Source: Lactarius indigo (Eukaryota > Basidiomycota > Agaricomycetes > Russulales > Russulaceae). From it: 64,000 nucleotides of DNA. The stretch lies in contig JAFKAC010000038.1 in the NCBI GenBank assembly GCA_025766275.1, positions 62,001 to 126,000 of the forward strand, given 5' to 3'. Numbering within the stretch: position 1 is the stretch's first letter; the number at the start of each line of letters is the position of its first letter. Position numbers and translations under genes: made by a program. Of this stretch, positions 16,640-63,765 are shown piece by piece. The notes beneath the pieces are model-generated. The model was not told the origin of the DNA and did not search any database. It saw nothing but the letters and a program-made list of their open reading frames with translations.

Positions 16640-17315
16640 TGTGATGACTCACTGTCACTCGACAGGGGGTCACGACGTAGGCAGAGACTGGGGGCTGAGA
16701 GGGTGTGGAGAAGAGATGCTCGATGACAGAAGAACACAAGATTCGCTCTTGGCTCAGTAGAGAGGTAGTGGCGCGCGATGAGCGGGGCACTCGAGGGAGC
16801 TGTGAGGCAAGAGGGAGGATGTCACAAGTGGACAGTCTGAGGGACTGTCCGTAGAATTGCACCAGCTTATATACTACAGGGGGTGGTCTGTGCATAGGTT
16901 TAGGGTAGGCTTAAGGCCCATCCACGGGTGCTGCGCAGTACTGCGCAAAGGAACATTCTAGAGACATCTAACAATAAAGTCCAATCAGAAGAGGTTTAAA
17001 CATAGAACGACTGCGCCGCAGTCAATGGTGCAATCTTGCGTCAGGATGGCATGATTCCGCAGTCAATGCGGGAAATCCCGAGGGGTGGTGACTTGGTTGA
17101 TTATCTTCGTTGATTGATCAACAATCAACTGTTGATAAGTACACGTGTACACAACACGTGGCTTGAGAGACATGACAGATCACATGATCGTTTTGAGAAC
17201 AGGATTCAAACTCCGATTCGGAATTCCCCTTTAGGAAGGTGATTACATAAGACCGGACCAATGCGGACCGGTCTTAGGCGCCCTTGAGTCACGACCGGGT
17301 TATAGGTTCGTGACA
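16640..17315 (-). repeat. GyA1 3' LTR
   Basis: It starts TGTCACGAACC and ends GAGTCATCACA on the minus strand, preceded by the polypurine tract at 17316-17328. It is identical in length to the 5' LTR (25768-26443). All 11 differences between the two are C/T or G/A at CpG sites. Confidence 0.96.
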
Positions 17316-17326
17316 GTATCCCCTTT

Positions 17327-19147
17327 TTAACGCTGTGCTATTCCACAAGCACTAATGTTCTTTGGTCGAGGGGCAGAGGGGTTGTCCTTGTGGAAATGTT
17401 GGACAAGTTCTTGGGCATGGGACATTTGGGAGGCAGGGAGCCAGGAATTCTCGGAGTCGGGATACCCCTTCCATTTGATCAAGTAAAGTACGCCTTTCTT
17501 GTTGGGCGATACCTTTGACTGCAGGACCCTTTCGACTTCATAGTGTTCATCTTCCCCTTGGACAATTTCGGGGGGTGGTCGGGTGAAGTTAGGGCCATGC
17601 GTGGTGTTTTCTTTGTATGGGGAGATCAGGGAATTATGGAAGACTGGGTGGATTCGCCATGTCTTTGGGAGTTGGAGTTTGCAGTTGACTCCCCAGGAAG
17701 ATAGGACTTTAAAAGGACCATGGCGTCGGGGGGCAAGTTTAGCCTTGGGGTGGGTAGTGTGGATATTAGTCCCTTCCAGCCAGACTAGATCGCCTTCGTT
17801 GAACTTGTGAGAGATCATGGTTGACCTGGAATTTCTCATTACTTCTGCAGCGACTTTGAGGGCTGCGGTGACTTCAGAGCGAATTCGGTTCAACACGTCT
17901 AGTCTTTCTTCGGCTGCGGGTATCTTGCTATTGAAGTGGATGGGGGGAATGAACTCTGGATTGTACCCATACCACACTTCAAAGGGTGACTTGTGAGTTG
18001 CGCTGTGCTGTCGTGCGTTGTGTGCGAATTCCATGAACGGAATTAGATCTACCCAGTTGTCTTGTTGGAAGTTACAGAAGACACGGAGGTACTGTTCAAG
18101 TTCTTGGTTTACGCGTTTGGTTTCTCCATCTGTTTGCGGATGGAAAGCCGTGGACAGGGTAGATTTGACTCCTAATTTACTCCAGATTTCTTGCATTACT
18201 TTTGATGCAAATTGAGGGCCTCTGTCGGAAATAACTTGTCGGGGTAGGCCGGTGCGTCTCCAGACGTTTTCCAGGTAAAGTCGAGCAGTTTCATCTGCTG
18301 TGATGGTCTTGTTACACAGGGAAATGATTACCGCTTTACTGAGTCGGTCAACGACTACGAACAACGAGTCGTAGTTGTGGGAGGAGGGGAGGTCGGTGAT
18401 GAAGTCCATTGTAATGGTTCCCCAGATTTCTTCAGGAATAGCGTTGGGTTGCAGAGGTACTTGGGTTCGTGGTTTGATTTTTGTGGATTGGCAGGTGGCA
18501 CATCCATCGACGTATTCTTTGACAAACGTCGACATCCCTGGCCACCAAAAATCTCGGGAAAGGAGTTCATAAGTCTTCCATCGCCCTGGATGTCCCGTGG
18601 CGATGTGGTTGTGATACTGAGTTACGATGTCTCTTCGTAAGTTGTCATCTTTGGGTACATAGATTTGTCCTCGGAATAAGATGACTCCATCTTCTAAGTT
18701 CCACTCTTCTAGTCCCTTGGTTAAGGAACGGGGGCCATTCTTCAAGAGGGTTTCTAGGGCTGTGCTGACTTCTTTGTCGTAGGTGTGTGTGTCTCGGATG
18801 CGTTGTCGAAGAGTATTATCGCCATGAATGGTAACTGCAGTTCTTTGTACTGCATTAACCAAGAAAAATTTTGTGTCCAGGAGTACTCGTTTTTCATCTT
18901 CATCCGCTATCCCCTTTTTATGGTCTGGACGCCGGGACAGTGCATCAGATTTGTTCTGAATACCAGGCTTGTGGATGATGATGAACTGGAAACGAGACAG
19001 GAAAAGCACCCACCGCGCTTGTCGACGGGAAAGTTTCTGCTTCGTCATGAAGTAGGCCAGGTTATTGTGGTCGGACCAGATTTCGGTGGAATCGCTACGT
19101 CCCTCAAGGTAGTGTCGGAAGGCATGAAGGGCATGAATAATGGCCAA
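17327..19147 (-). CDS. GyA1 pol: RNase H end, integrase and chromodomain (606-codon open frame)
   Basis: It begins inside RNase H (LAIIHALHAFRHYLEG, TEIWSDHNNLAYF) just after a TGA at 19175-19177 that is CGA in GyA4. The integrase zinc domain is HNHIATGHPGRWKTYELL...WWPG...CATC. The core has TMDFITDLP, ISDRGPQFASK and TDGETKRVNQELEQYL, giving D, D and E. RRHGPFKVLSSW is the GPF/Y module. The chromodomain is YEVERVLQSKVSP...LYLIKWKGYPDSENSWLPASQM, followed by a short basic tail. Chromodomain integrases are known to steer insertion into heterochromatin. This is the best preserved integrase in the window; all catalytic residues are present. It is normally made as part of the Gag-Pol polyprotein, so the Met codon at 19147 is not a real start. 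Confidence 0.93.
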   Translation of the reverse strand: MAIIHALHAFRHYLEGRSDSTEIWSDHNNLAYFMTKQKLSRRQARWVLFLSRFQFIIIHKPGIQNKSDALSRRPDHKKGIADEDEKRVLLDTKFFLVNAVQRTAVTIHGDNTLRQRIRDTHTYDKEVSTALETLLKNGPRSLTKGLEEWNLEDGVILFRGQIYVPKDDNLRRDIVTQYHNHIATGHPGRWKTYELLSRDFWWPGMSTFVKEYVDGCATCQSTKIKPRTQVPLQPNAIPEEIWGTITMDFITDLPSSHNYDSLFVVVDRLSKAVIISLCNKTITADETARLYLENVWRRTGLPRQVISDRGPQFASKVMQEIWSKLGVKSTLSTAFHPQTDGETKRVNQELEQYLRVFCNFQQDNWVDLIPFMEFAHNARQHSATHKSPFEVWYGYNPEFIPPIHFNSKIPAAEERLDVLNRIRSEVTAALKVAAEVMRNSRSTMISHKFNEGDLVWLEGTNIHTTHPKAKLAPRRHGPFKVLSSWGVNCKLQLPKTWRIHPVFHNSLISPYKENTTHGPNFTRPPPEIVQGEDEHYEVERVLQSKVSPNKKGVLYLIKWKGYPDSENSWLPASQMSHAQELVQHFHKDNPSAPRPKNISACGIAQR

Positions 19148-20215
19148 AAGTTCCTTATCGCAAATCTCGTAGTGTCATTCTGCAGGGAGGAGAGATTTCA
19201 ATAGGAAGGCGACGGGGTGCCATTGGTGCAGGGCATCGGGTTGTTCAAGGACGGCGCCCGTGGTGAAGTCACTGGCGTCGGTGATGAGTCGGAAGGGCTT
19301 GGAATGGTCGGGAAGGGCCAGGACAGGTGCTTCCGTGAAGCATTTGATCAGAGTGCGGAAAGCGCTTTCCGCCGGGGTACTCCAAGAAAAAGGTACATCT
19401 TTCTTGGTTAGGTTGAAGAGTGGTCGGGCGATGGTAGAGTAATCTTTGATAAATCGCCGGTAAAAGTTGCAGAAGCCTAGGAAGGCTTGGACTTGTTTGA
19501 CTGTTCACGGGGTAGGCCACTCGGTGATCCCAGCAACTTTGGCGGGATCCATGGATACTTGGCCGTTGGAAATGACGATACCAAGGTATTCAACAGAGGT
19601 TTGTGCAAACACGCACTTCTCAGGTTTTAGATAGAGATCATGATGTTCCAGCCATTGGAGCACGTCGTGTGTCAACGCTGTAAGGGAGGAGATATCTTCC
19701 ATGAAGATCAGGATGTCGTCCAGGTAGACTACTACATGTCCACTGTCGATCAGGGACTCAAAAACTTGGTTCATGAACGTTTGGAACGTTGCTGGGGCAT
19801 TGCAGAGACCGAATGTCATTACAGTTGGCTCGAAAAGACCTAAGGAGGTTTTGAAGGCTGCCTTGTGCTCATCGCCTTCTCAGATACAGATATTGTTGTA
19901 CCCCCAACGAATATCTAACTTGATAAAGTAACGCGCATTGTGAAGTTTGTCGATTAACTTGGGAATAAGGGGTAGAGGTGCTGCATTTTTGATTGTAATG
20001 TCGTTCAGGGCCCGGTAGTCTTGTACCGGTCGGAGTTTTCCATCCTTCTTGTCGACAAAGAAGAAGGGGGAGGCCATGGGGGACTTGGATGGTCGGATGT
20101 AACCTTTTCGTAGGTGCTCAGAAATGTACTCCTTGAGTGCGTCGGCTTCTTTAGGCGTAAGTCGGTAGATGCCACAGTTCTTCATAGTGGCTCCAGGTTT
20201 CAGATCAATCACATG
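19148..20215 (-). pseudogene. GyA1 pol: reverse transcriptase and RNase H N-terminus
   Basis: RT blocks in order are [90 protein letters not shown], the catalytic VVYLDDILIF (about 19705-19735) and YLGIVISNGQVSMDPAKV. RNase H begins near 19300. Three TGA stops interrupt it: after NNICI (near 19878), after WPTP (near 19502) and at 19175-19177. Each falls where Arg (CGA) is expected. Apart from these nonsense codons the catalytic residues are intact. Confidence 0.93.
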
Positions 20216-20641
20216 ATCCCAGGGTTGGTGTTCAGGTAAATGGTGAGAGGCGTTCTCACTAAAAACTCGGGTGTATCGTTGGAAATGACTCAGGATGTGC
20301 TCGGAGGAAGGCTTAGGTGTGGTCTTCGCAGCTATCTTGGTACTTGTAGTGATTTTTGCTCGGATTGCAAGGTAATCGTACTTGCAGAAACTGTGACTCC
20401 ACAGCCAGGGTTCATAGGCTTCTTGGGTGAACGCTCGTTCAACAGGTTCTATCTCTTCGATAGTCGGGAGGCAAGCTCTTGGTGCGTCTTCAGGTCCTAA
20501 CTCTAGGATGTTTATCGTAGTATTTCTCGTTTGAGGGACTCGGGAAGAAATAACAACACTCGTTGTTGAGAGGGTACAGGTTTTCGGGCATCTTGTAAAT
20601 GCTATCTTGGGTTGATGCCAATCGATTTCCGGGTTATGTGC

Positions 20642-20950
20642 TCAGAGCCAATCCGTTCCCAGGATTATATCGTGCTCCCCAAGGGTGGTGGCGTATAGCT
20701 CCACCATTTTGTCGTGATAAGCATCTTCCGCTGTTCTGATCCGTAACTTCTGGATCGTGGTGTACTTGACCGAACCCATCTTATTGGGTGACCCGTCCAC
20801 GTTTCTAACTGGTAAAGGTCGGATTAGTGTTCTCATTGTGAGCCCGTTTGCACGCGCAAACCCATCATTCACGATGATGCCCTCCGCGCCACTGTCCAAC
20901 AGGGCACGGGCACTGATTTCTCTGCCAGACTTCTTTCCTACTAGTGTCAC
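20642..20950 (-). CDS. GyA1 protease core (open stretch)
   Basis: This is the uninterrupted part of the protease: it starts at the Met of MTLVGKKSGREISARA and ends after ILGTDWL. DSGAEG is the catalytic loop. The length (about 100 residues) fits a retropepsin monomer, which dimerises to form the active site. The Met is internal to the polyprotein. Confidence 0.85.
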   Translation of the reverse strand: MTLVGKKSGREISARALLDSGAEGIIVNDGFARANGLTMRTLIRPLPVRNVDGSPNKMGSVKYTTIQKLRIRTAEDAYHDKMVELYATTLGEHDIILGTDWL

Positions 20951-21062
20951 CTTGAGAACGATTGAAGGAGCTCTCCTATTCTGAATCGTTTCTACAGGTA
21001 CAGGCTCGGCTCCGAGCGTCTCTAGTAGGGAAAGGCCGTGTACAACGCTACTGGCACGAATA

Positions 21063-21103
21063 CTTCCAGTCGACAGTGCTGCGATGGAAGAGCCTAAAAA
21101 TCC
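21063..21103 (-). promoter_or_regulatory. GyA1 gag-pol -1 frameshift signal: GGATTTT plus hairpin
   Basis: On the minus strand G GAT TTT TAG lies in the gag-side frame, with the heptamer at 21103-21097 followed at once by the in-frame TAG. A 6-nt spacer (TAGGCT) leads to a hairpin at 21090-21063: CTTCCATCG pairs with CGA(C)TGGAAG, 9 bp with one bulge. The heptamer is kept in all four GyA copies (41904-41910, 49178-49184, 58986-58992). A TGA about 57 nt upstream (21157-21159) in the gag frame is a complication. Confidence 0.72.
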
Positions 21104-21156
21104 TCATTAATAGGCACCGAACGCGGACGTACGTCCGGGTCAAAAGGGAGTATCTC

Positions 21157-22644
21157 TCAATATACTGCTCTGATGTTTGCTGGGTGGTCAGCAGGTTCTT
21201 CCTCCTGACTTGGTTCGTCAGCAAAAGCGCCGCACGCCCTAGCGTTGTTGCCGGATTGGCTTCCTTTGGCCTTCATGGCTGCCGTCTTGGCGTGACATTC
21301 TTTAAGTACGTGGCCTGGCTTGCCACAGTACAGGCAGAGTTTATTCTTGAAGCGATACTCTCGCTCTTCTTTGGTAAGCTTGGCTTTTGGTTTGGTAGTA
21401 TGTGATGAGGAGGCGTTGACATTTACGCCATCATCCTCGGCTAGGACGGCTCGTCCTGTGGTGGGCTTATGGGTCTTATTAAACTGGTTAATGGCATGAC
21501 CAGCGTAAATTCGATATGCGCGATCGAATTCTCTTGCTTTCTCAACAAGGGTGTCAAAGGTGGTAGGAATGGGGGAGATGCCGAGTAGCTTCATGTTTAG
21601 GGCCATTGGAATAGCTTGGCGGAAGGCATACATCTTGGTTTGCTCGTTTGCACCACTTCACGTAGCATGGGTGGACCATTCTTGGAACCATTCGTTGAAA
21701 GGTCGGGTACCCATTTTTAGGGAATACATTTTGTTGGTAGATTCCATGGTGGTATGGCCAGGGACGAAGTGCGTGTCGAAGTCGGTTTTAAATTGTGCCC
21801 AGGTGCCAAAGGATATTGCCGCTCCTCCCGTTGGGTTCAAAGCTTTCTTTTGTCTGTCTTGAGCCCATTCCCCAGCTGGGGTTCCAACCTTAAAATAGGT
21901 AAGGGCAGTGGATATCTTTTTATCTTCGGTGTTAAAGATATCCTGGTTTAGATGGAAGTAGTTGGCCAGGTTGTTCCAAAAGGCCTCAGCATTATTGGGC
22001 TTGCCATCAAAGGGCTCAGGTGCTGCGCCTAAAATTTTTGTGGGTGCAGGGGCTGCCATTGCAGTGGGTACAGGAGGAATGGATAAGGGTGGTGCTGAGG
22101 AAGAGGCTTGAACGGTCAGGGATGGTGACGGGAGTCGATGTGGGGGAACTGTTGCAGGCAAGCGGCTTGGGCCGGAGGTACTAGGGGAGATCTGAGGTGT
22201 CGAGGGTCGGGAGGTTACTTGGGAGAGTAGACTGGAGAGTTTCTTGGTAGTAGTATCTAGGATTTGTGATACTTCTTCTGTATCACTTGTTGAATCGTCA
22301 GATTCACTGGGTGTGTTGAAGTGGACTGGTTTGTTGTTTAGGTAGATCCACTGTTCGTTTACAAAGTTCCAACGAACATTCTTTCCCTTGAAGGTGGTGT
22401 GTAGGGCGTTGTAGTTTATATTTTCAACTTTGTCAATACCCGGAAAGGCTTCCTTGAGGTCTTGAAAAACAAGTTGGTGTTGGGTGGCAACAACTGTCCA
22501 CGGGTGTTTTCCAGTAGGGCTGGAGATGTCCTCCTCTTTCCACTTGGCGTAGTAAAGGTTATCGGTGAGGGAAAAATAAGGGTCGAAGAAGTATACTGGG
22601 ACGTGGGCTTTTTCTTCGGCTGTGAGAGGTCGCTGTGTATTCAT
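21157..22644 (-). pseudogene. GyA1 gag
   Basis: The start is ATG at 22644 (MNTQRPLTAEEKAHVPVYFF). N-terminal domain: DPYFSLTDNLYYAKWKEED, then WNFVNEQWIYLNNKPVHF. A Ser/Pro linker precedes the capsid: PEPFDGKPNNAEAFWNNLAN, YFKVGTPAGEWAQD, FGTWAQFKTDFDTHFVPG, MYSLKMGTRPFNEWFQEW. Next comes a TGA (near 21655; AAACGA is the likely ancestral form, CAA in GyA3), then MYAFRQAIPMALNMKLLG and the CCHC knuckle LCLYCGKPGHVLKECHAK. Stop TGA at 21157-21159. Gag packages the RNA and builds the particle. The ATG overlaps the ORF3 stop as ATGA. Confidence 0.92.
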
Positions 22645-23327
22645 TCACCTCTTCTGGTGAGATGGGTGACAGTCCAACTGTCCAGATTCCAGGGGTAGTA
22701 GACTTTGTACGCGGGGAGTAGGATAGCTCTATCCGGACGATGGGGTCTTTGTGAACGACGGATCCAATGGTATTCTTCCCAAATACCAAAGTGGGTCAGG
22801 GTTGTTTTACTTCTCCACAAGAAGTCTTGGAAATATAAAGGGCTTGTCGAGACCTCGCTAATGCGCGTAAGCAGCTGGGAAAAGTACAGGGTTTCAAGAT
22901 TGTGCCGGTTTTGGTACAACAGAGAACAGTGTCTTCTGAACACATTGAGTTCTCGGGGGGTTCGGGTTGGTAGGCTTTTGGTTACTAGGATAGCCTTGGG
23001 GAGATGACAATGGATTTCTCGGGGTTGGGTCTCGAGATACTGAGCTTCGTCGCTGCTCGTGGAATGCTGCCTTGCAGTTGGAGTTGCTTGGATACTGGGG
23101 TACACCGGTTCACTTGGTCCGGCTTGGTTAATACTTGGAAGGGGAATCTGGGTGTTGGTAGCTCGACGAGCTCTGGGGGCCCTTCTTGGGGTAACAGGGG
23201 TACTAGGGGTAGAGGCTATGGGTCGATCGTCCACTTGGAAGCGACGATGAGTTCTTCTTTGGGCGACGTGTGAGGATGCCAGGTTAATTGCCCAATGAAT
23301 TGGATCCAGGGTTTGACTTGAAAGTTG
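22641..23327 (-). CDS. GyA1 ORF3, accessory protein of unknown function upstream of gag
   Basis: The frame is open from just after a TGA (23328-23330) to TGA at 22641-22643. No ATG is present near its start. Conserved with GyA3 and GyA4: TRTPRELNVFRRHCSLLYQN, PLYFQDFLWRSKTTLTHFGI, WEEYHWIRR, RAILLPAYKVYYPWN and SWTVTHL. The N-terminal part is Pro/Ser/Arg-rich. AAG|TGGACG at 23234 would yield an AUG if used as a splice acceptor joined to an exon ending in A, but coding similarity extends further upstream. The aromatic, Trp-rich C-terminus recalls the N-terminal domain of Gag. Not a domain I recognise. Confidence 0.65.
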   Translation of the reverse strand, partial: QLSSQTLDPIHWAINLASSHVAQRRTHRRFQVDDRPIASTPSTPVTPRRAPRARRATNTQIPLPSINQAGPSEPVYPSIQATPTARQHSTSSDEAQYLETQPREIHCHLPKAILVTKSLPTRTPRELNVFRRHCSLLYQNRHNLETLYFSQLLTRISEVSTSPLYFQDFLWRSKTTLTHFGIWEEYHWIRRSQRPHRPDRAILLPAYKVYYPWNLDSWTVTHLTRRGE

Positions 23328-23361
23328 TCAAATTTTACACTCGTAAAATTTATCTCGACAA
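23325..23361 (-). other. Hairpin with CGAGTG loop between ORF2 and ORF3
   Basis: On the minus strand AAATTTTA-CGAGTG-TAAAATTT is a perfect 8-bp stem, extended by TTGTC/GACAA with a 5-nt bulge. The loop is identical to the two hairpins in the ORF1-ORF2 spacer. GyA4 has a different, weaker hairpin at this place. Confidence 0.6.
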
Positions 23362-23371
23362 TCTATACTAT

Positions 23372-24354
23372 CTAGGCCTTTTCTCTATAAGGTAGATAGT
23401 TAATTCCAGGAGACCACAACACTACGTTGGGGGGTGTTGGGGGGGTGTTGGGACGATAACCACCAGTGCAAACTTCTTGAGAGCACCAACAGGGGCTGGA
23501 GGTCAGAGTTGGTCCCCAACCGTCATTTGGACTAGGTGGCTGGTTAGTGTCTCCGTTGTGAAGGGAGATGTCGGAGTCTGAAGATTCGTCTTCAGTTTCA
23601 GGGGAACTAGGGGGAAGCCGGTCTGTAATTCGGCGGAGTAGGGGCGGGGTCCGGAAAGTTTCTCTGGCGTTGAGAATTGACACTAGTTCAGGGTCGTCAG
23701 AGGTCGAAGGGGGATAGTGCCAGATGCTAGGGTTGATAAGGTTCTGGTCAGGGTTTGACAAGGTAGTTTCCCACACAGAGGTGGTGAAGGAGTAAGTGAG
23801 CTCCGAACTATCGGAGATGACTAGACAGGGGGCGGAGTCGGGGTGAATGATTACTCGGATTTCTTGGAAGGAAATTTGTATTTCCTGATATGTGAGGCGG
23901 AGTCGGTCGACAAAGTGAAGAGAGAAGCCCTCCTCAAGTTGCTGGATGTAGTGGTCTCGACGAGGGGGAACGTGGACAAACCAAAGATAATCGCTCTTGG
24001 CCCACACTAGGAGTTGGTCTGTTGGATGGTTGGTGGAGGAGACGGAGTTCGAAAGGTGCCAATAAAGGAGTTGCTTGTCGGCAGCCTTGACAACTTCGGA
24101 AAGGTCGTCAATAAACTTGTGGTAAACCCTTTCAGGGATGACTTCTCCAAAGTCAAAGAGGTCGATAAGGGTACGTAAGGCGGTGGGTGGTTCTGTCCAA
24201 CAGTCAAGATGGGGGTTATCGATGAGGTCGTAAGTGGAAGTGACGGGGTAGTAGCGGTCAAGTTGCCGCTGCCTGTGGGACTCGAAGTTAACTCGGGCTC
24301 GCGCGAGCCTTTGTTCTTCAGATAAGTTGAAGGTAAATGGAGTAGAAGGAGGCA
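23372..24354 (-). CDS. GyA1 ORF2, accessory protein with C-terminal Cys motif
   Basis: The frame has no ATG: a TAA directly precedes TAAG|TGCCTCC. Removing the predicted intron 24355-24406 joins ...GCAAA to TGCCTCC and creates ATG CCT CCT. About 327 residues: NLSEEQRLARARVNFESHRQ, RYYP, CWTEPPTALRTL, LLYWHLSNSVSS, DYLWFVHVPPRRDHYI, FQEI, VWETTL, an acidic Ser/Asp stretch, then SPCWCSQEVCTGGYRP and NVVLWSPGINYLPY. The C-x-C-x5-C motif could bind metal. GyA4 ORF2 keeps the same blocks but at roughly half identity by eye, far below gag and pol, yet remains largely open. Function unknown. Confidence 0.7.
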
Positions 24355-24375
24355 CTTAAATCACTCGATTTAAGT
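24354..24375 (-). other. Hairpin with CGAGTG loop at the ORF2 3' splice site
   Basis: ACTTAAAT-CGAGTG-ATTTAAGT is a perfect 8-bp stem. The predicted acceptor AAG| of ORF2 lies in its 3' arm, so folding could hide the splice site. GyA2 keeps the stem with a TGAGTG loop. Confidence 0.6.
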
Positions 24376-24406
24376 CCCAAACCCAAATAAGTAAACACTT
24401 ACTTAC
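24355..24406 (-). other. Predicted 52-nt intron that creates the ORF2 start codon
   Basis: The donor GTAAGT (first G at 24406) and acceptor TTTAAG (last G at 24355) lie in the ORF1-ORF2 spacer. Splicing gives GCAA-ATG-CCTCC. Equivalent sites are present in GyA2 (45207-45253) and GyA4 (62317-62363), both 47 nt, and both also create ATG. Confidence 0.6.
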
Positions 24407-24417
24407 TTTGCGTTGTA

Positions 24418-24437
24418 CTTAAAACACTCGTTTCAAG
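24418..24437 (-). other. Hairpin with CGAGTG loop in the ORF1-ORF2 spacer
   Basis: CTTGAAA-CGAGTG-TTTTAAG forms a 7-bp stem with one G-U pair. GyA4 has the same stem as CTTAAAA-TGAGTG-TTTTAAG, perfect. It lies between the ORF1 stop (24463) and the predicted intron. Confidence 0.55.
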
Positions 24438-24462
24438 ACAAGGCAAATATATAACCACTTAT

Positions 24463-25724
24463 CTAAAGTGGCTGGTCGTCTGGAAAGGTGGAGATGAAAC
24501 TAAATGGGTCAGTAGGAATACGAGGGGAAAGACAATAAGCAAGAAGATGGGGGGCAGCGCAAACTAAGTCCTCGAAGAAGTAAGCCTGCTGATGAGCGTA
24601 AATTTGTCCGTCAAAAGAAAAACGTAAGTGTCTGTAAGTGGTCACAATCCTTCCGTCCAAAAAGTCCTGGATCTCTAGGGTTACTAGAGAGTCGATATAC
24701 CCTGCCCTGTGGACATTAGCAAGGGGGGTGAAGGCGCGTCTCAGGCCTTCCCTGAAATCGTAGCGGGTGGTCCCAAAGGGGGTGTTGGGGGAGGGAAGGT
24801 CGTAGATGGCCTTGGAACAGATGTACAAGGGCGGGAAGTTGGGGTGTTGAGCGGGGTCAACAATGCGCGGGAAAAGGGTGTAGACGTGAGGGGGAAGGAG
24901 GCGGAAAGGGGTGACGGAAGGAAAGATCGGGGGGAAATTAATGAGGGAGGTGGCGAGGGGAATCTTAGTGATAAGTTCCCGGAGCGTCGTGGAGGCGGGC
25001 CGCCAAGATTCTCCTTGGGGGGTGACGACGGTGATGTACTGGTGGGGGTGTTCTCCTTGGTGAAGGAGGCAAGGGGGTGCCTGGTAGGCAGTGGGGCCGA
25101 GGGGGGGAAGGTTCTCCTGGTCGGGGTGAGGGGCCGGAGGGAAGACGGGGCCTTGTTCGGCTACTCGCTCGTAGTTAATCGGTGAGTCGGGGGTTGCAAG
25201 GCGGGAGGGGACCGGAACAGGAGACGGAGAGCGACGAGGAGTCGGAGGAAGAACAGGAGGTGGCAAAGGAGAGCCACGAAGGGAAACAGGAGGGCGGGGG
25301 GTCGGGACTCGGAGGGGAGGCGCAGACTCGGCACGGGGTTCAGGGGACAAGGGGACAACGTTCCCGTTGAGGTCGATGATCTCGAGGACCTCTTTGTAGA
25401 ACTGGGCGGTGCTGGGGGACAGGGGACGAGGGGAAGGACGAGGGGTGGCTTCTTCAGCCGGAGCGTAGGGATAGACTAGTTCGGGGGTTGCGTCCCGAAC
25501 AAGGGCGACAGGGGCGGGGGGCTCGTTACCACCGAAGGTGGCAGGGGTGTAGGGGGTGGCGAAGCGGAGGCTGTCAAGACGGACAGCAGAGGAGGAGGGG
25601 ACAGGGGAAGCGCGGGAAAAGTCGAGGGGGCTACCTTGGTTGTTGAACTCCGACTGGTAGCTGGCAGAATCTCCGTCCCACTGACCGTACTGCGAGAAGT
25701 CGTACTCGTAGTTGTAGTCAGCCA
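24463..25724 (-). CDS. GyA1 ORF1, first accessory protein, start codon created by splicing
   Basis: About 420 residues. The first codon is A (25781, in the LTR) joined to TG (25724-25723) after removal of the predicted intron 25725-25780. Reads MADYNYEYDFSQYGQWDGDS, a long Pro/Ser/Arg-rich low-complexity half, then a conserved half: QAPPCLLHQGEHPHQYITVV, TPQGESWRPASTTLRELI, LLPPHVYTLFPRIVDP, NFPPLYICSKAIYDLP, YDFREGLRRAF, LVTLEIQDFLDGRIVTTYRH, LLAYCLSPRIPTDPFSFI. GyA4 (418 residues) keeps the C-terminal half closely while the N-terminal half diverges, a sign of selection on the former. No transmembrane segment or signal peptide is evident, so it does not look like an envelope protein. Unknown function. 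Confidence 0.75.
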
Positions 25725-25780
25725 CTGGAGCAGCCTGGAGTCAGTCTATTGGGTAAGACTGTCCAAGTGTGATGACTCAC
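25725..25780 (-). other. Predicted 56-nt intron spanning the 5' LTR edge and primer-binding site
   Basis: Donor ACA|GTGAGT (25780 down) lies in the last 13 nt of the LTR. The branch CTGAC is at 25744-25740 and the acceptor CAG ends at 25725. Splicing gives ACA+TGG, an ATG with G at +4. The intron contains the primer-binding site (25756-25765). GyA2 (46597-46652) and GyA4 (63710-63765) have the same donor, branch and acceptor, and the same length of 56 nt. Confidence 0.75.
25756..25765 (-). promoter_or_regulatory. GyA1 primer-binding site, candidate self-priming
   Basis: TGGACAGTCT (minus strand), 2 nt inside the 5' LTR edge, is the exact complement of AGACTGTCCA in the LTR (plus coordinates 25957-25966). 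That segment lies 33 nt after the TATAAG box (25999-25994), where the mRNA should begin. Because it also starts TGG, pairing with a tRNA CCA end is an alternative. Confidence 0.7.
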
Positions 25781-26443
25781 TGTCACTCGACAGGGGGTCA
25801 CGACGTAGGCAGAGACTGGGGGCTGAGAGGGTGTGGAGAAGAGATGCTCGATGACAGAAGAACACAAGATTCGCTCTTGGCTCAGTAGAGAGGTAGTGGC
25901 GTGCGATGAGCGGGGCACTCGAGGGAGCCGTGAGGCAAGAGGGAGGATGTCACAAGTGGACAGTCTGAGGGACTGTCCATAGAATTGCACCAGCTTATAT
26001 ACTACAGGGGGTGGTCTGTGCGTAGGTTTAGGGTAGGCTTAAGGCCCATCCACGGGTGCTGCGCAGTACTGCGCAAAGGAACATTCTAGAGACATCTAAC
26101 AATAAAGTCCAATCAGAAGAGGTTTAAACATAGAACGACTGCGCCGCAGTCAATGGCGCAATCTTGCGTCAGGATGGCGTGATTCCGCAGTCAATGCGGG
26201 AAATCCCAAGGGGTGGTGACTTGGTTGATTATCTTCATTGATTGATCAACAATCAACTGTTGATAAGTACACATGTACACAACACGTGGCTTGAGAGACG
26301 TGACAGATCACGTGATCGTTTTGAGAACAGGATTCAAACTCCGATTCGGAATTCCCCTTTAGGAAGGTGATTACATAAGACCGGACCAATGCGGACCGGT
26401 CTTAGGCGCCCTTGAGTCACGACCGGGTTATAGGTTCGTGACA
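25768..26443 (-). repeat. GyA1 5' LTR (promoter and splice donor)
   Basis: 676 bp. The promoter TATATAAG is at about 26001-25994. A 7-bp palindrome GGACAGT...ACTGTCC sits at the predicted RNA 5' end. The splice donor is ACA|GTGAGT at the 3' edge. The right flank GTGAT (26444-26448) matches the left flank of the element. Confidence 0.96.
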
Positions 26444-28838: not shown

Positions 28839-29518
28839 TGTGGGGAACTCACTGTCACTTGACAGTGAGGGATATGGTTGGAGGCAACCGTGGGCAAGAT
28901 AGAGATGGAGAGAACATCAGAGGGGGTGAAGAGGAGGCATCTTGGCTCAAAGGAAGTAGTGGGGCACTCAAAGGAACTAGGAGGCAAGAGGAAGATGTCA
29001 CAAGTGGACAGTCTGAGGGACTGTCCAATAGATTGAGCTAGCTTATATACTACAAGGGGTGGTCTGTGTGTAGGTTTAGGGCAGGCTTAGGGCCCGTCCA
29101 CAAGTGCTGCATAATACTGCAGATTGGAACATTCCAGAGGTAACTATTAATATTGTCCAATCAGAATAAAGGATAAGCATGGTACAACTGTGCTGCAGTC
29201 AAAGACACCATATTGTGTCATAGTGGTGTGATTCTGCAGCAGCTGCGGAACTCGTGACCAATACACATGTTTCTTCATGACTTGGTTGACTATCTTTGTT
29301 GATCAATAAATGATCAACTGTTGATTGGTACATGTGCTCATACACATGTGACTTGGAAAGACAGAGTAATCATGTGATGCATCACATGATCATTGGAGAG
29401 TGAAATTCAAACTCCGATTCCGGATTTCCCCTTTTAGGAAGTTGATGACATAAGGCCAGTCCAGTCCAGTCTGGTCCTAAGTGCCTTGAGTCACAACCAG
29501 GTTTATAGGTTCATGACA
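28839..29518 (-). repeat. GyA2 3' LTR
   Basis: 680 bp, from TGTCATGAACC to GAGTTCCCCACA on the minus strand, followed on its internal side (29519 and up) by the polypurine tract. The palindrome has the usual loop order (GGACAGT-CCCTCAG-ACTGTCC on the minus strand). Confidence 0.95.
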
Positions 29519-46596: not shown

Positions 46597-46652
46597 CTGG
46601 AAGAACCCAAGGTCAGCCTGTTAAAGAGACTGTCCAAGTGTGGGGAACTCAC
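46597..46652 (-). other. GyA2 predicted LTR/PBS-spanning intron (56 nt)
   Basis: Same donor ACA|GTGAGT, branch GCTGAC and CAG acceptor as in GyA1 and GyA4, and the same length. It contains the primer-binding site AGACTGTCCA complement at about 46627-46636. Confidence 0.7.
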
Positions 46653-47297
46653 TGTCACTTGACAGCAAGGGATACAGTTGGAGGTGATGGTGGGCAAGAT
46701 AGAGACAGAGAGAATGTCAGAGGGGGCGAAGAGGAGGCATCTTGGCTCGAAGGAAGTAGGAGGCAAGAGGAAGATGTCACAAGTGGACAGTCCCTCAGAC
46801 TGTCCAATAGATTGAGCTAGCTTATATACTACAAGGGGTGGTCTGTGTGTAGGTTTAGGGCAGGCTTAGGGCCCGTTCACAAGTGCTGCATAATACTGCA
46901 GATTGGAACATTCCAGAGGTAACTATTAATATTGTCCAATCAGAATAAAGGATAAGCATGGTACAACTGCGCTGGAGTTGATGACACCATATTGTGTCAT
47001 AGTGGTGTGATTCCACAGCAACTGCAGAACTTGTAACCAATACATGTGTTTCTTCATGACTTGGTTGACTATTTTCATTGATCAATAAGTGATCAACTGT
47101 TGATTGGTACACGTGCTTGTACACATGTGACTTGGAAAGACAGAGTAATCACATGACACATCACGTGATTGTTGGAGAGTGAAATTCAAACTCCGATTCC
47201 GGATTTCCCCTTTTAGGAAGTTGATGACATAAGGCTGGTCCGGTCCAGTCTGGTCCTAAGCACCTTGAGTCATGACCAGGTTTATAGGTTTGTGACA
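46639..47297 (-). repeat. GyA2 5' LTR with inverted palindrome loop
   Basis: 659 bp. Plus-strand sequence at the palindrome is GGACAGT-CCCTCAG-ACTGTCC; in the other LTRs here the 7-nt loop reads CTGAGGG on the plus strand. The loop has flipped relative to the 3' LTR at 28839-29518. Confidence 0.94.
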
Positions 47298-62316: not shown

Positions 62317-62363
62317 CTTAAACCACTTGGTTTGGGACCTTTAGATAGTAACGATTTACTTAC
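62317..62363 (-). other. GyA4 predicted intron before ORF2 (47 nt)
   Basis: Donor GTAAGT (62363 down), acceptor TTTAAG (62317). Joining gives CAAAT-ATG-CCC. Beside it, at about 62379-62398, lies the CTTAAAA-TGAGTG-TTTTAAG hairpin. Confidence 0.58.
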
Positions 62364-63709: not shown

Positions 63710-63765
63710 CTGGAAAAGCCCGAGGTCAGTCTATTAAAGAGACTGTCCAAGTGTGGTGAACTCAC
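63710..63765 (-). other. GyA4 predicted LTR/PBS-spanning intron (56 nt)
   Basis: ACA|GTGAGT donor at 63765, branch CTGAC near 63725-63730, acceptor CAG at 63712-63710. It contains the primer-binding site (63740-63749, complement of AGACTGTCCA). Confidence 0.72.

What the first reader, a model, noticed from the sequence alone, without database searches (positions are those of the whole stretch)
25725..25780. An intron across the LTR/primer-binding-site junction appears to create the ORF1 start codon and remove the primer-binding site
Seen: GyA ORF1 has no ATG. In GyA1, GyA2 and GyA4 a segment of exactly 56 nt has donor ACA|GTGAGT inside the LTR, a CTGAC branch, and acceptor CAG|TGG. Joining gives ACATGG, which starts ORF1. 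The segment contains the primer-binding site. Known: fungal introns are commonly 50-60 nt with this consensus. Inference: spliced RNA would be translated for ORF1 but could not prime reverse transcription, while unspliced RNA could serve as genome and gag-pol template. That would be a simple switch between messenger and genome, and I know of no description of it in a fungal LTR element.
Basis: partly seen in the sequence, partly recalled or inferred. Interest (0 to 1): 0.9.

Follow-up and report, generated by a model that had tools for sequence, protein, structure and literature searches.

The report
Start-codon introns in fungal retrotransposon
A mushroom-fungus retrotransposon appears to keep 3.3 kilobases of its RNA free of start codons and to make the start codon of each of two extra genes by cutting out a tiny intron, so that splicing may decide which protein is made and whether the RNA can still be copied into DNA.

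Summary
The 56-nt segment is real and exact. In the fetched loci 73 genuine copies were found; all keep donor GTGAGT, branch CTGAC and acceptor AG|TG (one acceptor read by eye). Length varies 50-57 nt, and joining gives ATG. The segment holds the primer-binding site.

Three findings go further. (1) A second, 47-53-nt intron makes ORF2's ATG the same way (62 of 74 copies examined). (2) From the predicted RNA start to the gag ATG, 3.3 kb with three conserved ORFs, four intact copies have no ATG in any frame (17.7-20.5 expected each), while CAT is normal. (3) ORF1 relatives down to 25% identity are almost methionine-free (36 of 28,187 residues), and 15 Lactarius gene models seem to use the same junction.

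Best reading: each intron is a start-codon switch. Intron 1 out gives ORF1; intron 2 alone out gives ORF2; both kept gives gag from the first AUG, plus a reverse-transcribable genome. Priming is probably by the RNA's own 5' end rather than a tRNA. No RNA evidence was available. EBV EBNA-LP and RTBV are partial precedents.

The parts
25768..26443 (-). 5' LTR of GyA1 (676 nt, TGTCACG...CATCACA)
   Evidence: matches 3' LTR 16640-17315 (98-99% over the repeats reported); ATCAC repeat on both sides
25957..25966 (-). predicted RNA 5' end AGACTGTCCA, likely self-primer
   Evidence: about 35 nt downstream of the first T of TATATAA; perfectly complementary to the PBS in 70 of 71 copies. Start site inferred, not mapped
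25780..25793 (-). hairpin CTGTC-GAGT-GACAG spanning the donor of intron 1
   Evidence: 66 of 75 copies identical
25725..25780 (-). intron 1 (56 nt), makes ORF1 ATG, contains PBS
25756..25766 (-). primer-binding site TTGGACAGTCT
25740..25744 (-). branch-like CTGAC, 20 nt from the acceptor
   Evidence: in all 75 copies of the scored set, which had been selected for GTGAGT and AGTG; distance
24463..25724 (-). ORF1 (420 codons with the spliced A of 25781)
   Evidence: dN/dS 0.11-0.15, no internal Met in the four copies compared; no Pfam match
24418..24437 (-). hairpin with GAGT loop, 11 nt upstream of donor 2
   Evidence: present in both subfamilies
24355..24406 (-). intron 2 (52 nt), A|GTAAGT...TTTAAG|TG, makes ORF2 ATG
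   Evidence: six Lactarius models
24354..24375 (-). hairpin ACTTAAATC-GAGT-GATTTAAGT at acceptor 2
   Evidence: in subfamily B copies the pairing is largely kept with a T-A to C-G change
23372..24354 (-). ORF2 (327 codons)
   Evidence: dN/dS 0.08-0.26, no internal Met in the four copies compared
23330..23351 (-). hairpin AAATTTTAC-GAGT-GTAAAATTT before ORF3
   Evidence: 4 of the 6 copies scanned (GyA1, L102, L103, L105; not L104 or GyA4)
22641..23309 (-). ORF3, probable CUG start (A at -3, G at +4)
   Evidence: dN/dS 0.05-0.07 from CTG, no Met in the four copies compared; start codon inferred
22645..25966 (-). AUG desert: GyA1 itself has 3 ATGs; four intact copies have none
17327..22644 (-). 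gag (ATG at 22644) and pol with PR, RT, RH, IN, Tf2-1 SH3 and chromodomain; frames broken by stops in this copy
   Evidence: Pfam; frames
46597..46652 (-). intron 1 of GyA2
63710..63765 (-). intron 1 of GyA4
62317..62363 (-). intron 2 of GyA4 (47 nt)

Best explanation
GyA is a fungal chromodomain Ty3/gypsy retrotransposon with three extra ORFs before gag, on an RNA purged of AUG codons. Two short spliceosomal introns, one before ORF1 and one before ORF2, each end in AG|TG after an exon ending in A, so removing the intron creates the ORF's AUG. Intron 1 out: the first AUG is ORF1's, and the RNA has lost its primer-binding site. Intron 1 kept and intron 2 out: the first AUG is ORF2's. Both kept: scanning ribosomes meet no AUG for 3.3 kb and start at gag, and the RNA keeps the PBS that pairs with its own 5' end. 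ORF3 is probably read from a CUG in good context. Shown: the sequence features, their conservation, purifying selection on ORF1-3 and the absence of AUG. Inferred: actual splicing, RNA start site, scanning, self-priming, and hairpins with a GAGU loop as handles that regulate retention.
For: Donor, branch and acceptor are kept in all 73 genuine copies found while the intron changes length by non-multiples of three. A scan of four deserts for A|GTRNGT ... AG|TG at 45-75 nt finds only the two ORF starts, each with CTNAN 20-21 nt before the acceptor; 0 of 400 shuffles per copy reach two. ATG is 0 against 17.7-20.5 expected, while CAT, CTG, GTG, TTG and ACG are not depleted, so the selection is on the RNA strand and on AUG. 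ORF1-3 are under purifying selection. Distant relatives: Met 36 of 28,187 residues in 89 ORF1 relatives, 67 of them with none; 7 of 5,311 in ORF2 (some being models' own start Mets) and 0 of 1,001 in ORF3. Of 47 JGI-called ORF1 relatives 39 start with V, 35 of them as VS or VA, as AG|TG read unspliced would give; a few of the 47 are fragments starting elsewhere. 15 Lactarius models read SSD|MSD or LSD|MSD and six read NAT|MP or NTT|MP, which fit the same two junctions (judged from protein, no DNA seen). P0005, P0028 and P0050 read through what looks like donor, PBS (TWTV) and a 55-nt intron (for the first two, for all three).
Against: No RNA or protein data could be examined. The Lactarius models are predictions of unknown support and not unanimous: P0080 and P0093 read V across the junction unspliced, P0002 and P0061 read L there. 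No genomic copy with either intron cleanly removed was found, so there is no fossil of splicing; this also fits selective packaging of unspliced RNA. Acceptor 2 (AAG, no pyrimidine tract, inside a hairpin, with a GAG decoy in the loop) is not a strong acceptor. Scanning 3.3 kb is long. The gag AUG has T at -3. The four whole deserts come from copies chosen for an intact, ATG-free ORF1; unselected GyA1 has 3 ATGs.
Confidence: 0.68

Rival explanations
1. No splicing: ORF1 and ORF2 start at GUG (and ORF3 at CUG) on one unspliced RNA, with leaky scanning through AUG-free ORFs to gag, as in rice tungro bacilliform virus (RTBV).
For: GTG stands exactly at both ORF starts and V in many distant relatives; AUG-free ORFs are the known signature of leaky scanning (PMC5902531 passages); no splice option was found for ORF3.
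Against: Does not explain conserved donors with A at -1, branch sites or the spacing at both ORFs; both GTGs lack a purine at -3; most Lactarius models with this N-terminus place Met as splicing would.
Confidence: 0.14
2. The introns are real but spliced constitutively; ORF1 is simply translated from mature mRNA and the genome is the minor unspliced fraction, without a regulated choice.
For: Intron 1 has strong consensus sites; partial splicing of LTR-element RNA is known in Ogre and BARE (PMC6317226 and PMC3735527 passages).
Against: If intron 1 were nearly always removed, ORF2 and gag would rarely have the first AUG and a selected AUG-free 3.3 kb would be pointless; hairpin over donor 1 in most copies.
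Confidence: 0.13
3. ORF1, ORF2, ORF3 and gag are translated in series by termination-reinitiation or internal entry guided by the GAGU hairpins; the introns are minor.
For: ORF3 stop overlaps or adjoins gag ATG (GAATGA; TAGTGTATG); hairpins stand in the ORF1-ORF2 gap and in part in the ORF2-ORF3 gap.
Against: In intact copies ORF1 and ORF2 have no AUG to reinitiate at without splicing.
Confidence: 0.04
4. Copies look alike only because they are young, and the features are shared by descent without function.
For: The 39 other matches to GyA1 listed are 86-97% identical over the query.
Against: Subfamilies A and B differ at dS about 1-2.3 in ORF1-3 yet keep both introns and zero ATG; relatives at 25-50% identity keep a nearly Met-free ORF and often a V start.
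Confidence: 0.01

Closest known systems
Epstein-Barr virus EBNA-LP start codon made by splicing C2 or W0 to W1' (PMC12451641, passages)
   Same: A splice junction creates an AUG; [quoted passage not shown]
   Different: Alternative acceptors in a herpesvirus; one AUG; not a retroelement; no PBS removed; no 3.3-kb AUG desert with two serial introns
RTBV and badnavirus leaky scanning through AUG-free ORFs (PMC5902531, passages)
   Same: Retroelement RNA with accessory ORFs cleared of AUGs so that ribosomes reach a downstream ORF
   Different: About 900 nt in RTBV, with AUU or moderate-context AUG starts; not splice-made AUGs; plant pararetroviruses
BARE distinct RNA pools (PMC3735527, passages)
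   Same: Splicing and transcript class divide an LTR element's RNA between messenger and genome
   Different: 104-nt intron at the end of gag leads to a stop codon; PBS not in the intron; separate TATA boxes
Tf1/Tj1 self-primed LTR retrotransposons (PMC4600332, passages; PMC6317226, passages)
   Same: PBS complementary to the element's own RNA 5' end; Tf2-1-like SH3 domain in integrase
   Different: No start-codon introns or AUG-free pre-gag ORFs mentioned in the passages seen
Ogre and other plant Ty3/gypsy elements with extra ORFs and partial splicing (PMC6317226, passages)
   Same: Extra ORFs; [quoted passage not shown]
   Different: Ogre's intron lies between the gag-protease and RT-RH-integrase ORFs; it does not create a start codon

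Membership tests
Ty3/gypsy chromovirus | gag, PR, RT, RH, IN plus chromodomain between LTRs | tested here: met
   Pfam hits Retrotrans_gag, gag-asp_proteas, RVT_1 (just below its cut-off), RT_RNaseH, rve, Chromo; LTR pair and target-site repeat
Tf1/sushi self-primed group | PBS complementary to the 5' end of the element's RNA | tested here: met
   10-nt perfect match in 70 of 71 copies; RNA start inferred from the TATA box only
Tf1/sushi self-primed group | placement in the Tf1/sushi clade by RT phylogeny | not tested
   no tree built; only the Tf2-1 SH3 domain match
tRNA-primed LTR element | PBS complementary to a host tRNA 3' end | tested here: inconclusive
   pattern for such a tRNA gave 83 places against 20 in the control; 5 were tried, ARAGORN found no tRNA; the other 78 places not checked
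Spliceosomal intron | donor, branch and acceptor at fungal spacing, length free of reading frame | tested here: met
   the fungal consensus itself is recalled
Spliceosomal intron | spliced RNA exists | not testable with these tools
   no RNA data; no precise intron-less genomic copy
RTBV-type leaky scanning | ORFs before the main ORF free of internal AUG | tested here: met
   four copies chosen for an intact ORF1
RTBV-type leaky scanning | ribosome shunt over a structured leader with short AUG-started uORFs | tested here: not met
   leader plus intron free of ATG in 44 of 46 copies
EBNA-LP-type splice-made AUG | AUG formed across a splice junction | tested here: met
   at sequence level, ORF1 and ORF2; not shown in RNA

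The most novel reading that the evidence does not exclude
A combinatorial start-codon code: on a 3.3-kb AUG-free polycistronic retrotransposon RNA, the retention pattern of two tiny introns selects ORF1, ORF2 or gag-pol, and the first intron also carries the PBS, so choosing ORF1 irreversibly takes that RNA out of the genome pool. Hairpins with a GAGU loop at the donors would let an element protein hold splicing off, giving feedback from messenger to genome. The system would be old and widespread among mushroom fungi.
Probability: 0.45. Interest if true: 0.95.

Novelty: new variant of a known kind. Interest (0 to 1): 0.86.

Why it matters
How one RNA serves both as messenger and as genome is an old question for retroelements. 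Here splicing alone could settle it, and the same trick would choose among ORFs. The predictions are exact (two junctions, one RNA start, initiator peptides), so RNA-seq of Lactarius or related mushrooms could test them at once. ORF1-3 define protein families without a recognised domain that gene callers mis-start, because intact copies contain no ATG for ORF1 or ORF2.

Tried and rejected
ORF1 as gag: rejected; gag begins at 22644 with its own ATG. In-frame upstream ATG as the real ORF1 start (GyA4 and a few others): rejected as general; leader plus intron has no ATG in 44 of 46 full-length-ORF1 copies, and ATGs inside ORF1 of older copies usually stand where ATG-free copies read ACG (34 of 52 sites). 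AUG loss by DNA-level mutation such as RIP: rejected, since CAT and the other triplets counted are not depleted in the same way. A third start-codon intron for ORF3: none found (no consistent AG|TG). Intron-less genomic copies: none. Divergent families in the same genome: none evident; three protein queries returned lists dominated by the GyA places already seen, though not every listed place was checked. Relatives in IMG/VR: none with one protein and one DNA pattern. Known domains or solved structures: no Pfam or NCBIfam match for ORF1-3 of GyA1, chance-level Pfam matches to three families, one member each, among 20 ORF2 sequences, no PDB match for the ORF1 profile and one at E 0.85 for ORF2; ORF3 was not compared with PDB. 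AlphaFold: switched off.

Full report
What is there. The window carries several copies of a Ty3/gypsy element on the minus strand. GyA1 runs from a 676-nt LTR at 25768-26443 to its partner at 16640-17315, flanked by the target-site repeat ATCAC. Pfam finds gag, protease, RT (just below its cut-off), RNase H, integrase, a Tf2-1-type SH3 domain and a chromodomain. Gag begins at an ATG at 22644. Between the LTR and gag lie three further ORFs of 420, 327 and about 222 codons that match no Pfam or NCBIfam family.

The reported segment. At 25725-25780 the sequence reads GACA|GTGAGT ... CTGAC ... CCAG|TGGCTGAC, 56 nt; GyA2 and GyA4 match. The genome is an unnamed 90.3-Mb assembly, presumably of a mushroom fungus since the named relatives are Lactarius. 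The PBS pattern occurs 440 times with up to two mismatches against 34 for the reversed control; in the fetched loci about half of such matches are the antisense of the related hairpin at the RNA start. In the set of 75 scored for detail, which had been selected for GTGAGT and AGTG, intron length is 56 (37), 55 (35), 57, 54 or 50 (one each), so it is free of the reading frame; the base before the donor is A and the exon after AG begins TG in all 75.

A second such intron. Four copies with an intact, ATG-free ORF1 were read through to gag. A scan for A|GTRNGT followed within 45-75 nt by AG|TG finds exactly two acceptors in each: intron 1 and a site before ORF2 (A|GTAAGT ... TAAG|TGCC). Both have a CTNAN branch-like site 20-21 nt from the acceptor. 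Dinucleotide shuffles give 0.01-0.03 per copy and never two (0 of 400 for each copy). Of 74 copies with enough sequence, 62 have this second pair, 47-53 nt long, with A before the donor in all 62. In 11 of the other 12 the expected stretch holds other sequence (rearranged, truncated or shifted); the twelfth, L052, has a GTAAGTGT variant that the scan did not count.

The AUG desert. In these four copies the first ATG in any frame downstream of the predicted RNA start is that of gag, 3,319-3,387 nt away. A Markov expectation is 17.7-20.5 ATGs; CAT, the reverse complement, occurs 32-37 times against 29-34 expected, and CTG, GTG, TTG and ACG are not depleted. GyA1, not chosen for this, has 3 ATGs where base composition alone would give about 31. 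Among 47 copies with a full-length ORF1, 31 have no ATG in ORF1; of 46 with a recognisable start, 44 have none in leader plus intron and 30 none in the whole stretch to the end of ORF1. Where older copies do have ATG in ORF1, the ATG-free copies mostly read ACG (34 of 52 sites), as decay after insertion would give.

The ORFs are real. Between copies of subfamily A dN/dS is 0.05-0.13 for ORF1-3, and between subfamilies A and B 0.07-0.26; the copies compared have no internal Met in ORF1-3. Searches found 89 relatives of ORF1, 15 of ORF2 and 5 of ORF3; those with a species name are all Lactarius. In the 89 ORF1 relatives, down to 25% identity, Met is 36 of 28,187 residues and 67 have none; for ORF2, 7 of 5,311 in 22 proteins, some being the start Met of gene models; for ORF3, 0 of 1,001 in 5. 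As a control, pieces of gag and pol of GyA1 hold 22 Met in 1,515 residues. Of 47 JGI-called ORF1 relatives 39 start with V (31 VS, 4 VA), 7 with L and 1 with M, as expected if the genomic codon is GTG, the unspliced reading of AG|TG; a few of these are fragments that start elsewhere. Fifteen Lactarius models read SSD|MSD (14) or LSD|MSD (1), as exon CTG TCG AGT GAC A joined to TG would give, and six read NAT|MP or NTT|MP at ORF2; against that, P0080 and P0093 read V at the ORF1 junction and P0002 and P0061 read L. These are protein sequences of predicted genes; their DNA and RNA support were not seen.

Priming. The PBS TTGGACAGTCT is complementary to AGACTGTCCA, a predicted RNA 5' end about 35 nt after the start of TATATAA, perfectly in 70 of 71 copies. 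This is the Tf1/Tj1 kind of self-priming (PMC4600332 passages). The tRNA alternative was only lightly tested: 5 of 83 pattern matches were examined and none is a tRNA by ARAGORN. The PBS can also pair with AGACTG at the branch site (predicted folds), so priming and splicing may exclude each other; this is inference.

How it most likely works. Removal of intron 1 gives ORF1 the first AUG and deletes the PBS. Retention of intron 1 with removal of intron 2 would give ORF2 the first AUG. Retention of both leaves gag first and keeps the PBS. ORF3 probably starts at a CUG with A at -3 and G at +4; its stop overlaps or adjoins the gag ATG. Hairpins with a GAGT loop stand at donor 1, beside donor 2 and at acceptor 2; one more lies before ORF3 in 4 of 6 copies. 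They may control retention, but that is a guess. No precise intron-less copy was found in the genome with four junction patterns, two per intron, up to three mismatches; this fits packaging of unspliced RNA only but gives no direct proof of splicing.

What is known. EBV makes the EBNA-LP AUG by splicing C2 or W0 to W1', other junctions serving downstream proteins (PMC12451641, passages). RTBV scans through AUG-free ORFs over about 900 nt, and badnaviruses are predicted to do the same (PMC5902531, passages). BARE and Ogre splice part of their RNA (PMC3735527 and PMC6317226, passages). Nine answered literature searches listed no title or abstract start describing a start-codon intron or an AUG-free pre-gag region in an LTR retrotransposon; the library holds only openly licensed papers. 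The combination is therefore a new variant of known principles in a new place, with a strikingly strong sequence signature.

Noticed in passing
window 46785-46805 (GyA2 5' LTR) compared with its 3' LTR near 29000: The 21-nt hairpin at the predicted RNA start is inverted (GGACAGTCTGAGGGACTGTCC against GGACAGTCCCTCAGACTGTCC) in this one LTR; the other 69 of 70 copies with a recognised start have the usual orientation.
   Followed up: partly
L102 (copy L007) compared with L103 and L105: ORF1-3 are 93-98% identical at the protein level between these copies, but the first 140 codons of gag only 52-62%: mosaic elements with a swap near the ORF3/gag border.
   Followed up: no
window 24418-24437, 24354-24375, 23330-23351, 25780-25793: Hairpins with the same GAGT loop at or near donors, acceptor 2 and the ORF2-ORF3 gap; Lactarius protein models (SSDM, NRVIQ) are compatible with CGAGTG at the corresponding places. 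Function unknown.
   Followed up: partly
GyA4, 87 nt upstream of the junction, and a few other subfamily B copies: An ATG in the LTR is in frame with ORF1 through the splice and would add 29 residues.
   Followed up: partly
G000, 83 places of pattern GTTCRANYCNNNNNAGACTGT: A dispersed repeat (GTTCGAGTCGATAAAGACTGT and variants) resembles a tRNA 3' half but gave no tRNA in the 5 places checked.
   Followed up: partly
window 17327-22644: GyA1 gag-pol is interrupted by several stops although its LTRs are about 99% identical over the compared stretch.
   Followed up: no
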